Positions 4,759 through 8,445 of a stretch of 32,119 nt of DNA are shown one piece after another (the stretch's first letter is position 1; every line of letters begins with the position of its first letter). The translations under genes and the position numbers were made by a program. Below the pieces are notes generated by a model. That model ran no database searches. It saw only the letters and a program-made list of their open reading frames with translations, and was not told the DNA's origin. Source of the DNA: Actinomycetes bacterium (GTDB lineage Bacteria; Actinomycetota; Acidimicrobiia; Acidimicrobiales; Palsa-688); the NCBI GenBank assembly GCA_021838305.1, contig JAKCEB010000010.1:1-32119 (forward strand), written 5' to 3'.

Positions 4759-4768
4759 ATTATCGTGG
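4759..4768. promoter_or_regulatory. Possible MarR half-operator upstream of the GMC operon
   Basis: ATTATCGTGG occurs here, identical to ten bases of the palindromic operator between clcA-like and marR genes (6644-6653). It covers the stop codon of the ClC gene and lies 55 nt before the ATG of the 4-TM gene. Only one arm is present, so binding is speculative. Confidence 0.25.
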
Positions 4769-6631
4769 CGGCCGGGTTGAGCGGCGAAGGCTGAGCACCC
4801 GCTCAGCGTGGCGTTCTTCCTCCAGGAGCTTCTGGCGTGCTGACAGGAGGTCGAACTGGGTGATGAGCCCGCGCAATTGGTCAGGGTCGCGACGGTCGAC
4901 AACCGGGATCACCCCGATGTTGTGGCTGGCCATACGGTCTGCGACCCCACGGAGAATCTCGTCGGGGTATGCCACTGCGACCGGCGTGATCATGGCGTCG
5001 GCGACCTGGCTGGTCGCGTCGTCCTTACCTCCAAGGACCGTCGACCACGGCAGGATCCCGATGGTCCGATCGGTGCCGTCGAGGACGGGGTAGAGGCGCT
5101 GGCGTCGTGCGGGCGATCCCTCGCCGATCTCACGATAGACGTCGGCGAGCGTCTTGTCGGCGTCCAGTGTGTAGATTTCGGTGTCCATGACTTCGCGTAC
5201 GAAGGTGGCTTCGAGCGGGTCGACGCTGTACTCGCGCATGACGTGGAAGCCGCGGCGGGCGACTTTTTCAGTCAGAATGGACCGCTTCAAGATGAGGACG
5301 CTCACAAGGTGGGAGACCGTCGCGGCTACAAGGAGGGGAAGAAGACTGTTCTGGTCGTGGGTGAGCTCGAAAGCGAACACGATCGCGGTAAACGGCGAGC
5401 GAGTCACGCCCGCAAGCGACCCGGCGAGGCCGATCAGCGCCCAAACGCCGGTGGTGGCGCCGGGTAGGACGTGACCGGCGATCCCACCGAGAGCAGCGCC
5501 CATCATCAGGATCGGAGCCAGGATCCCCCCGCTGGTGCCGCCGCCCAGACCGCCAGACCAAATGACAAGCTTGACGACGAATAGGAGCGCGAGCGCGCCG
5601 AGACTCAGTCGACCGAGCAGCTCTGAGTGGATGGTGTTGTAGCCGACGCCGAGCGCCCTGGGGTCGACAAGGCCACCGAGACCGATGATCGCACCGCCGA
5701 TGAGCGGCCACCACATCCAATGCAGACGGCCCCGCAGACGTCCGAAGAGGTCCTCGAAACCGTAGACGGCCTGGGTCATCACCCACGCTCCGAGGCCGGT
5801 GATAACTCCGACAGCTGCGGCTCCGAGGAGGGTGATCCCGCCGAGGGGAAGGTGAGCAGGGACGGGGAAGAGAGGCTGGGGGGCGACCAGACCTGCGGTG
5901 GCCATGACCATTCGCAGCCCGTCCGCTGTCGCCGAGGCGATACCGATGAGCACCATTGAACGCGGCTTGAATTCGAAGGCGAGCAACTCGACGCCGAACA
6001 GGGTGGCAGCGACGGGCGTGCCGAATACGGCGCTCATTCCCGCCGCCGCCCCTGCCACAAGCAGACTGCGCCGCTCGGCTGCCGTGAGCCTGAAAAGCTG
6101 CCCTACGATCGACCCGATCGCTCCGCCGGTGAGGATTATCGGGCCTTCAGCGCCGAACGGGCCGCCGGTGCCGATGCTGATCGCGCTCGAGATCGGCTTG
6201 AGGATCGCGAGGCGCGGCGCAACACGGCTCCCGTTGATGAGGATCCGCTCCATGGCCTCCGGTATTCCGTGCCCCCGGATCTGCTCGGACCCGAACCGGG
6301 CGATGAGTCCCACGATCAGGCCGCCTGCTATCGGTATTACGGCTGCGAGGGCACCGAGGGTGTTGGCGTTGGGCGAAACCAGGGCCACGCTGACGCGTCC
6401 GTAGTAGAACAAGTTGGTGAAGAACCCGATCATGTCGAGCAGCGCCAGAGATATCCCTGCACCTAGCGCGCCCACCACAAGCGCGAGAGGGACGAGGGGA
6501 AGGATCTTGTTCGTCGTTGTGAAGTCGCCCAAGGCCCGTTCGGGGGTCGCCTTCGGCCGGCTGTCCACGCCCAAGTAGTCGCCATCGACGTCCGACTCTG
6601 GTGGTTGCTGAGCCTTCCTGGAAAAATACAT
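4760..6631 (-). CDS. ClC-family chloride channel/antiporter with C-terminal CBS pair
   Basis: A 623-residue membrane protein with about ten or more hydrophobic segments. ClC signatures are present: GHGIPE (120-125), GTGGPFGAEGP with the gating Glu at 162, and GGTSGGILAP (364-373). The C-terminus holds two CBS domains, about 478-535 (VREVMDTEIYTL) and about 548-605 (VADAMITPVAVA), which bind nucleotides and tune activity. The usual Ser of GSGIP is His, and the site of the chloride-coordinating Tyr reads SILTEK (451-456), so ion selectivity may differ from E. coli ClcA. The start ATG at 6631 has no Shine-Dalgarno; TAATAT lies 9 nt before it, implying an almost leaderless mRNA, and the promoter sits inside the MarR-type palindromes. 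Chloride/proton exchange, acid resistance or pH homeostasis is the likely job. Confidence 0.92.
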   Translation of the reverse strand: MYFSRKAQQPPESDVDGDYLGVDSRPKATPERALGDFTTTNKILPLVPLALVVGALGAGISLALLDMIGFFTNLFYYGRVSVALVSPNANTLGALAAVIPIAGGLIVGLIARFGSEQIRGHGIPEAMERILINGSRVAPRLAILKPISSAISIGTGGPFGAEGPIILTGGAIGSIVGQLFRLTAAERRSLLVAGAAAGMSAVFGTPVAATLFGVELLAFEFKPRSMVLIGIASATADGLRMVMATAGLVAPQPLFPVPAHLPLGGITLLGAAAVGVITGLGAWVMTQAVYGFEDLFGRLRGRLHWMWWPLIGGAIIGLGGLVDPRALGVGYNTIHSELLGRLSLGALALLFVVKLVIWSGGLGGGTSGGILAPILMMGAALGGIAGHVLPGATTGVWALIGLAGSLAGVTRSPFTAIVFAFELTHDQNSLLPLLVAATVSHLVSVLILKRSILTEKVARRGFHVMREYSVDPLEATFVREVMDTEIYTLDADKTLADVYREIGEGSPARRQRLYPVLDGTDRTIGILPWSTVLGGKDDATSQVADAMITPVAVAYPDEILRGVADRMASHNIGVIPVVDRRDPDQLRGLITQFDLLSARQKLLEEERHAERVLSLRRSTRPPR

Positions 6632-6651
6632 CGTGACACGATATTATCGTG
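6630..6651. promoter_or_regulatory. Interlocked palindromic operator and divergent promoter (ClC/MarR)
   Basis: Two perfect palindromes share an arm. ATCGTG-A-CACGAT covers 6630-6642, and CACGATA-T-TATCGTG covers 6637-6651. The block contains TATCGT (6645-6650), 7 nt before the MarR ATG at 6658, and on the other strand TAATAT, 9 nt before the ClC ATG. Both -10 elements therefore lie inside the operator, so a bound dimeric repressor would block both genes. Binding by the adjacent MarR protein is the natural inference. Confidence 0.7.
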
Positions 6652-6657
6652 GACGCC

Positions 6658-7119
6658 ATGCCCCTTCCGGAAAATGTCTATGCACGACTGCTTGCGCTCC
6701 GGACCGCAATGCGTCGCTTCGAACGCTGGAGTGAACAGCAAGCGCAGGAAGCAGGCTTGACCCCGGCGCAGCACCAGCTTCTGCTCGCTGTACGAGGTCA
6801 CGGCGATCCCCGCGGGCCGACAATCGGCGAGGTCGCTGACTATCTGGTCCTACGCCACCACAGCGCCGTGGAACTCGTGGATCGCGCCGACTCCGCTGGC
6901 CTCGTCGTACGGGTTCGTGACTCCGATGACCACCGGATAGTCCGATTGGCGCTGACCGACGACGGCGCGAGACGACTGGAAGCGTTATCTAAGTTGCACC
7001 TTCAGGAACTCCAAAGGCTCGGGTCGGATGCGCCCTGCGATTGGATCATCGATCCCGAGGCGGCCCATCCTACGTTGGCGCGCGAGTCGGCCGATGCAAC
7101 TCGCTGCCGACCACCTTAG
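6658..7119 (+). CDS. MarR-family transcriptional regulator
   Basis: A 153-residue winged-helix protein. LTPAQHQLLLAVRGHG opens the DNA-binding domain, TIGEVADYLVLRHHSAVELV is the helix-turn-helix, and VVRVRDSDDHRIVRLALTD is the wing with the Asp-Asp-x-Arg motif typical of MarR proteins. ATG at 6658 is preferred over in-frame GTG at 6649, because TATCGT sits exactly 7 nt before the ATG and the GTG lies inside the operator. It is divergent from the ClC gene and probably represses it and itself through the palindromes at 6630-6651. The last 30 residues, after QELQRLGSDAP, are unrelated to the core fold and end in an Arg/Pro-rich tail. The ligand cannot be predicted. Confidence 0.88.
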   Translation: MPLPENVYARLLALRTAMRRFERWSEQQAQEAGLTPAQHQLLLAVRGHGDPRGPTIGEVADYLVLRHHSAVELVDRADSAGLVVRVRDSDDHRIVRLALTDDGARRLEALSKLHLQELQRLGSDAPCDWIIDPEAAHPTLARESADATRCRPP

Positions 7120-7200: not shown

Positions 7201-7701
7201 GTGAATGTGAGGTCGGAAAATTCGACCGCATCAGTAGTCGGCAGAGTCGCAGAGGAGATCGACGTGACCAAGTTGCACGAGATCCTGGCTTTGTTGCTGG
7301 ACAGGACCGGTGCAAGCAGGACAACCCTCAGATGGGCTAATCGAGATTCGGGGCCAGTGCTTATCGCCGAAGTGTGTGCTCCTGGAGTTTCCTCGATGAG
7401 AGACTCCTCGCTGCGAGGTGTAGCCGAAGCTCCAACGTATCTATATTTGTTGGAGCACCGGAGATTTCTGATCCAAGAGGACTGCTTGGCCGACCCGGTT
7501 GCGCCTCCTCGATCTTTGGTCGAGGACTTCGACGTGAGAGCCCAGATGTTGGCACCAGTCACGTTGGACGACGCAATGATCGCGACGATATCGGTTCATT
7601 ACCAAGGAGCGCCGCGTGCCTGGTCGGAGGCGGACATCGAATCCCTTACGGCCGCTCAGCTCGAGGTGGCCGCTACGATCGGAGTTTCCGAGCAGCTTTG
7701 A
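7201..7701 (+). CDS. Standalone GAF-domain protein
   Basis: A 166-residue protein that is essentially one GAF domain. VTKLHEILALLLDRTGASRTT is the first helix and strand, RFLIQEDCLADP lies in the middle, and APVTLDDAMIATISVHYQG followed by WSEADIESLTAAQLEVA closes the fold. GAF domains sense small molecules or redox state; no output domain is attached, so it must act through a partner. GTG at 7201 has little room for a ribosome site; GTG at 7207, preceded by GAGGAG, or GTG at 7264 are alternatives. The 3' end overlaps the convergent GntR-family gene by 29 nt. It stands alone between MarR and GntR regulators, and I see no evidence for a specific ligand. Confidence 0.75.
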   Translation: MNVRSENSTASVVGRVAEEIDVTKLHEILALLLDRTGASRTTLRWANRDSGPVLIAEVCAPGVSSMRDSSLRGVAEAPTYLYLLEHRRFLIQEDCLADPVAPPRSLVEDFDVRAQMLAPVTLDDAMIATISVHYQGAPRAWSEADIESLTAAQLEVAATIGVSEQL

Positions 7702-8320
7702 GCCCGCTTACGGCGTGACTTCGTGCAGCGGCGGCCGCCCGGTCGGCGTCGCCACGTGACAGGGCTGCGAGCAGCTTCCGGTGGGTGTCGCAACTTGCGA
7801 TGGCGTCTGTTTCCCCGTTGCCTGGATTGACCGCAACGTCGAGAAACGGCAGGATGTGGTTGTCGACGAAGATCGACATGCGGGGCCCGAACCCTACGGC
7901 ATAGATTCCCCGGTGGAACTGGATGTGGGCTTCGCTCACGCTGTGGTCAGACTCGCCGATGCGAGTTGCAAGGTTTTCCAGCTCAGCCCAGTCTCGTAGG
8001 GTCGCGCGACGGGCCATTAGTCTCGCCGCCAAGCCGTCGAGCTCGACGCGAAGCAGGCCTATGTCTCCGAGATCGTCAGGACCGGCAGGCGTCGCCACCA
8101 ATCGGCCTTTGCCGATGCGCTGCACGAAACCGTCACTTTCGAGTCGGCGAAGCGCCTCGCGGACCGGCGTACGCGAGACGTCCATGCGTGCAGCAATCTC
8201 GATCTCGAGTATCCGCGCGCCTGGCGGGATGTCTTGGTGGACCAACTCGGTCTTGAGGCGTCGGTACACAGCCTCGCCGTGTGAGACGGGAGCGGTGGTT
8301 CGAGTTTCATCGCGTGGCAT
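7673..8320 (-). CDS. GntR-family regulator with FCD ligand domain
   Basis: 215 residues. The N-terminal winged helix reads AVYRRLKTELVHQDIPPGARI, then the helix-turn-helix RMDVSRTPVREALRRLESDGFV. The rest is the all-helical FCD domain (FadR subgroup), with IQFHRGIYAV, THRKLLAALSRGD and ARSHAVSG supplying the histidines that bind metal or acid ligands in this family. ATG at 8320 has GGGAG about 9 nt upstream; an in-frame GTG is directly before it. The gene is divergent from the ABC transporter operon across a 302-nt region holding two copies of an ACGTATACA-type element, so it most likely controls that transporter and perhaps the nearby ureide genes. FCD ligands are usually small carboxylates. 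Its 3' end overlaps the GAF gene. Confidence 0.9.
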   Translation of the reverse strand: MPRDETRTTAPVSHGEAVYRRLKTELVHQDIPPGARILEIEIAARMDVSRTPVREALRRLESDGFVQRIGKGRLVATPAGPDDLGDIGLLRVELDGLAARLMARRATLRDWAELENLATRIGESDHSVSEAHIQFHRGIYAVGFGPRMSIFVDNHILPFLDVAVNPGNGETDAIASCDTHRKLLAALSRGDADRAAAAARSHAVSGLKAARKLRS

Positions 8321-8445
8321 CACTTGGCACTCCCATGGACGGCTGACGACACCTCTCGTGAAGCGAGCGTGCCGCCAAACTATAACGTGGTCTAGGGCTT
8401 GGACTTCCTTCGGAGGCGGCGAGACAGGTCACACAATGTTCAGTT

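What the first reader, a model, noticed from the sequence alone, without database searches (positions are those of the whole stretch)
6630..6658. Two interlocked palindromes covering both divergent promoters and a start codon
ATCGTG-A-CACGAT and CACGATA-T-TATCGTG share the CACGAT arm, making three half-sites in 22 bp. Both -10 elements (TATCGT for marR, TAATAT for the ClC gene) are inside, and start codons follow after 7 and 9 nt, so both messages are leaderless or nearly so. The three-half-site layout offers two mutually exclusive dimer positions, a possible switch between regulating the channel and the regulator.
Basis: partly seen in the sequence, partly recalled or inferred. Interest (0 to 1): 0.6.

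Follow-up and report, generated by a model that had tools for sequence, protein, structure and literature searches.

The report
Tandem MarR operators between divergent promoters
A real and conserved 22-base control region between a chloride-channel gene and its MarR-type regulator packs promoters, repressor sites and a start codon together; it is best read as a tightly compressed version of an ordinary self-regulating switch, not as two competing repressor positions.

Summary
ATCGTG-A-CACGAT (6630-6642) and CACGATA-T-TATCGTG (6637-6651) are exact. The three-half-site pattern ATCGTnnnACGATnnnATCGT occurs once in the 2.8-Mb assembly. It occurs at 18 listed places in 16 of 397 order-level genomes, mostly between MarR and ClC genes, while the reversed control pattern gives none. 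The same register precedes this MarR in 35 of 70 non-redundant homologous loci.

The comparison changes the interpretation. A fourth half-site (ACGAT), not used to select loci, stands 3 nt after the third (mean 3.3 of 5 matches; 0.5-1.7 at neighbouring offsets). Loci with only one site carry the ATCGTnnnACGAT type; none carries only the middle, everted type. So the array is most likely two abutting MarR operators 16 bp apart, and the second palindrome is their junction. In this genome the outer arm of operator 2 is lost (0 of 5), leaving three half-sites. A switch between mutually exclusive dimer positions is not supported.

Overlapping divergent -10 elements are plausible. A leaderless marR is supported by conserved -10-to-start spacing. 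A leaderless ClC fits this window and a few relatives, but in most relatives that ATG is out of frame. Protein binding and transcription starts were not testable here. A compact new member of a known kind.

The parts
6630..6642 (.). Operator 1 (O1): ATCGT-GAC-ACGAT, half-sites H1 and H2; intact palindrome
   Evidence: Unique in the assembly; the same type and register in relatives; the type found alone at single-site loci
6646..6658 (.). Operator 2 (O2), degenerate here: H3 ATCGT (6646-6650) kept, H4 (6654-6658, CGCCA) 0 of 5 matches to ACGAT
   Evidence: H4 conserved in relatives (A 23, C 21, G 30, A 27 of 35), mean 3.31 of 5 matches versus 0.5-1.7 at neighbouring offsets
6637..6651 (.). Second palindrome CACGATA-T-TATCGTG, read here as the O1/O2 junction (everted arrangement ACGATnnnATCGT), not an operator
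   Evidence: No locus has this as its only site; spacer symmetry kept in 4 of 35 relatives
6645..6650 (+). Putative marR -10 element TATCGT (TANNNT), 7 nt before ATG 6658
   Evidence: Sequence; T at the first position invariant in 35 of 35; spacing to the start codon conserved
6641..6646 (-). Putative ClC -10 element TAATAT, 9 nt before ATG 6631; TAnnAT in nearly all relatives
   Evidence: Sequence; column conservation
6658..7119 (+). marR-like regulator gene (start ATG 6658; alternative in-frame GTG 6649)
   Evidence: Pfam MarR_2 E=4.1e-12; best solved-structure match 3u2r, a MarR protein
4760..6631 (-). ClC-type chloride channel or exchanger with CBS domains
   Evidence: Pfam Voltage_CLC E=5.6e-72 and CBS E=2.2e-15; NCBIfam ClcB-like model matched but below its curated cut-off

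Best explanation
The region is a compressed autoregulatory node. The MarR-like dimer binds operators of the type (C)ATCGTnnnACGAT(G). Ancestrally two such operators stand side by side, 16 bp centre to centre. O1 lies over the ClC start-site region and part of its -10. O2 lies over the marR -10 and start. Bound protein would block RNA polymerase at both overlapping divergent promoters, repressing the channel and the regulator together until a ligand releases it. In this genome O1 is intact and O2 keeps only the half-site that also serves as the marR -10. ClC would then be repressed mainly by O1, and marR by O1 occlusion with at most weak O2 binding. The marR message is (near-)leaderless; the ClC message is probably so here. 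Shown: the letters, the conserved array, the fourth half-site, the association with MarR and ClC. Inferred: binding by this MarR, repression, promoter positions, ligand release.
For: Array in the same register before MarR in 35 of 70 non-redundant loci; 1 of 3500 shuffled sequences reaches that score. The fourth half-site was not used for selection yet is conserved. G283 and G130 carry four perfect half-sites. In L067 all four arms read GTCGT/ACGAC, changed together. O1 flanking bases are complementary in 27 of 35 versus 20.2 in shuffles. Single-site loci (Nocardia L064/L066/L068, L019, L020, L072) carry the O1 type, none only the junction type. Where ClC and MarR form one operon, an O1-type site with 0-1 mismatches sits upstream of ClC in 3 of 4 loci checked (L094, L095, L097; not L096). 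The -10-to-start spacing for marR is conserved.
Against: No binding, footprint or transcript data. The sequences are related, so counts are not independent events. H4 lies between -10 and start, so promoter or start-region constraints could add to its conservation. The window's own H4 is gone, so O2 may not work here. 24 of 67 aligned MarR relatives show no site near the gene; in some the site is upstream of a ClC-MarR operon, in others none was found. In 17 of 28 relatives the left-arm ATG is out of frame with ClC.
Confidence: 0.72

Rival explanations
1. One reading: one dimer chooses between the two overlapping palindromes, which share H2, so occupancy of one excludes the other and shifts regulation between the channel and the regulator.
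For: In the window both palindromes are perfect and share six bases; half-sites 1-3 are conserved in many relatives.
Against: The two palindromes have opposite arm orientation, so one two-fold symmetric dimer would not be expected to read both. No locus has the junction palindrome as its only site while several have only the O1 type. A fourth half-site exists. The junction's spacer symmetry is not conserved.
Confidence: 0.07
2. Only O1 is a MarR operator; the third and fourth half-site letters are mainly constraints of the overlapping promoters (TATCGT as marR -10, possibly with a TGn extension, plus start-region preferences).
For: H3 coincides exactly with a TANNNT -10 and the T at offset 15 is invariant in 35 of 35. 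H4 is lost in the window and weak in several relatives. Single-operator loci exist.
Against: A TANNNT element does not demand the central TCG, yet C and G of H3 are invariant in 35 of 35 (H3 was, however, part of the selection pattern). H4 matches ACGAT specifically at the 3-nt register, and L067 changes all four arms together.
Confidence: 0.18
3. The sites are bound by another regulator, or are a fortuitous symmetry of two back-to-back -10 elements with no regulator.
For: Promoter -10 symmetry alone can create bidirectional promoters (PMC10268837).
Against: The ATCGT/ACGAT arms go beyond -10 requirements, track this MarR even where no ClC match was found nearby (Nocardia L064/L066/L068, Conexibacter L063), and the 13-bp operator is unique in the assembly.
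Confidence: 0.03

Closest known systems
MarR-family autorepressors with a divergent target gene and palindromic operators over both promoters (general knowledge of the family)
   Same: wHTH MarR_2 protein, divergent gene pair, inverted-repeat operator of about 13-15 bp over the promoters
   Different: Two operators abut so closely that they form an extra palindrome, and operator arms double as -10 elements and overlap a start codon; the target is a ClC channel; ligand unknown
Bidirectional promoters with overlapping symmetric -10 elements (PMC10268837; PMC12825309, which includes the AcrR-repressed acrA/acrR pair)
   Same: Two divergent -10 elements overlapping on opposite strands, serving a regulator and a transporter-type gene; polymerase binding one way would exclude the other
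   Different: Inferred start sites are about 24-27 bp apart, at or just beyond the 7-25 bp definition and not the common 18 bp; starts are not mapped
Actinobacterial leaderless genes (TANNNT about 12 bp before the start codon; PMC3160421)
   Same: marR TATCGT begins 13 bp before ATG, and the spacing is conserved
   Different: The -10 is also a repressor half-site

Membership tests
MarR-family regulator | MarR winged-helix domain | tested here: met
   PF12802 E=4.1e-12, 46.5 bits against a cut-off of 27
MarR-family regulator | Binds a palindromic operator as a dimer | not testable with these tools
   A conserved palindrome tracks the gene; binding not measured
Divergent autoregulated MarR operon | Operator in the shared intergenic region, conserved with the gene pair | tested here: met
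Divergent autoregulated MarR operon | Regulator represses both genes and is released by a ligand | not testable with these tools
   No expression data
Bidirectional promoter | Overlapping divergent -10 elements | tested here: met
   6645-6650 (+) and 6646-6641 (-) in sequence; TAnnAT/TATCGT columns conserved
Bidirectional promoter | Mapped divergent starts 7-25 bp apart | not testable with these tools
   Only inferred, about 24-27 bp
Leaderless gene (marR) | TANNNT about 12 bp before the start codon, conserved | tested here: met
   Start exactly 7 nt after TATCGT in 16 of 35, 5-8 nt in most others
Leaderless gene (ClC) | ATG in the left arm is the ClC start, conserved | tested here: inconclusive
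   In frame in the window and 6 of 28 relatives (L079 and L091 clear); out of frame in 17
Two mutually exclusive overlapping operators | The second palindrome is an operator in its own right | tested here: not met
   Zero loci with only that type; spacer symmetry not conserved

The most novel reading that the evidence does not exclude
A single 29-bp element in which every MarR half-site doubles as a promoter or start-codon element, so that two dimers on a 16-bp tandem and RNA polymerase in two opposite orientations compete for the same bases; loss of one arm, as here, would tilt the balance between channel and regulator during evolution.
Probability: 0.25. Interest if true: 0.5.

Novelty: new member of a known kind. 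Interest (0 to 1): 0.35.

Why it matters
It gives a specific operator sequence and a testable regulator-target pair (MarR and a ClC channel) found across Acidimicrobiales-type genomes and their relatives; no paper on such a pair was found in the searches made here. It also shows how comparison of relatives can turn an apparent three-site switch into two tandem operators, one of them decayed. The array with half-sites doubling as -10 elements is a compact natural case for studying repressor and polymerase competition at bidirectional promoters.

Tried and rejected
Mutually exclusive dimers: rejected on comparative grounds. A conserved leaderless ClC start: rejected as a general rule because the ATG is usually out of frame; the out-of-frame ATG opens short reading frames without evident shared sequence, so a conserved leader peptide is not supported. 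A wider regulon in this genome: the exact 13-bp operator is unique; one-mismatch sites exist, somewhat more than control, but were not followed up. A recognition-helix difference between MarRs with and without the site: none seen. Covariation at the O1 spacer: none. Literature on MarR-regulated ClC: nothing relevant in the searches. Laying the whole genome in the script box was not available.

Full report
What is there. The window holds a divergent gene pair, a ClC-type channel with CBS domains (- strand, 6631-4760) and a MarR-like regulator (+ strand from ATG 6658, or GTG 6649). Only 26 bp separate ATG 6631 and ATG 6658. A TANNNT element (TATCGT) stands 7 nt before ATG 6658, and on the other strand TAATAT stands 9 nt before ATG 6631; the two hexamers overlap by 2 bp.

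Is it chance? No. The array is unique in the 2.8-Mb assembly, and so is ATCGTnnnACGAT. In 397 genomes of the order the three-half-site pattern occurs in 16, at 18 listed places (two of these are the reverse reading of a four-half-site array), with no hit of the reversed control. Most lie between homologues of this MarR and ClC. Among 70 non-redundant loci with a MarR homologue, 35 carry the array with at most 2 mismatches in 15; 1 of 3500 shuffled upstream regions does. The relatives come mainly from Acidimicrobiales-type metagenome bins, with Nocardia, Mycobacterium and Conexibacter further out.

What it is. The column profile shows H1 ATCGT, H2 ACGAT and H3 ATCGT at 8-bp steps, and then a fourth half-site that took no part in the selection: A 23, C 21, G 30, A 27 of 35, with T or the G of GTG in the fifth place. 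Mean matches to ACGAT are 3.31 of 5 at that offset and 0.5-1.7 at the others from 20 to 35. Two genomes have four perfect half-sites in the order-level scan, and Leekyejoonella L067 has all four arms as GTCGT/ACGAC, changed together. The flanking bases of O1 (C before, G after) pair as a palindrome in 27 of 35, against 20.2 in shuffles. So the simplest reading is two tandem operators of the type CATCGTnnnACGATG, 16 bp apart. The palindrome in the middle is their junction. Loci with a single site (Nocardia L064, L066, L068; L019; L020; L072) carry the operator type; none has the junction type alone. As a further test, loci in which ClC and MarR form one operon were fetched: in 3 of 4 an operator-type site with 0-1 mismatches sits upstream of ClC.

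In the window the outer arm of operator 2 matches 0 of 5. The three-half-site layout is therefore most likely the remnant of a four-half-site one, with H3 kept, perhaps because it is also the marR -10. The direction of change (loss here rather than gain elsewhere) is inferred from the breadth of the four-site form; no tree was built.

Promoters and starts. The T before H3 is invariant (35 of 35) and is needed for TATCGT on one strand and TAnnAT on the other. A start codon lies exactly 7 nt after TATCGT in 16 of 35 relatives and 5-8 nt after in most of the rest, which fits the published signature of leaderless actinobacterial genes (PMC3160421). For ClC the left-arm ATG is common (23 of 28) but in frame in only 6, one of these a doubtful match. 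The ATG is explained by the operator's own letters (ACGATG), and most relatives seem to start ClC further downstream. In this window ATG 6631 is in frame and is the likely start; later in-frame starts were not tested.

Mechanism. MarR bound at O1, and at O2 where intact, would cover both -10 elements and both starts and repress both genes; polymerase bound in one direction would also exclude the other. Overlapping divergent -10 elements are a known class (PMC10268837; PMC12825309), and the acrA/acrR pair is a described case with a repressor. Binding, repression and ligand are inferred, not shown.

Verdict. Observation confirmed; interpretation partly supported. This is a compact, conserved member of a known kind of control region, with one decayed operator arm in this genome.

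Noticed in passing
L006, L009, L032-L034, L040, L042-L046, L048, L051, L052, L055, L088 (- strand, left operator arm): The operator arm gives an ATG close to the inferred ClC transcription start that is out of frame with ClC and opens short frames of about 10-31 codons; no shared peptide was evident.
   Followed up: partly
L097 (G006:C11), L094 (G020:C1), L095 (G012:C300): In some relatives ClC and MarR lie in one operon instead of divergently, and the operator-type site is upstream of ClC.
   Followed up: yes
G031 (L004, L103, L104 and a further locus): One genome carries four homologues of this MarR; two of the loci have partial ClC matches and an operator-type site nearby.
   Followed up: no
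window 7201-7701 and 7673-8323: Downstream neighbours are a small GAF-domain protein (+) and a GntR/FCD regulator (-) whose 3' ends overlap by about 29 bp.
   Followed up: no
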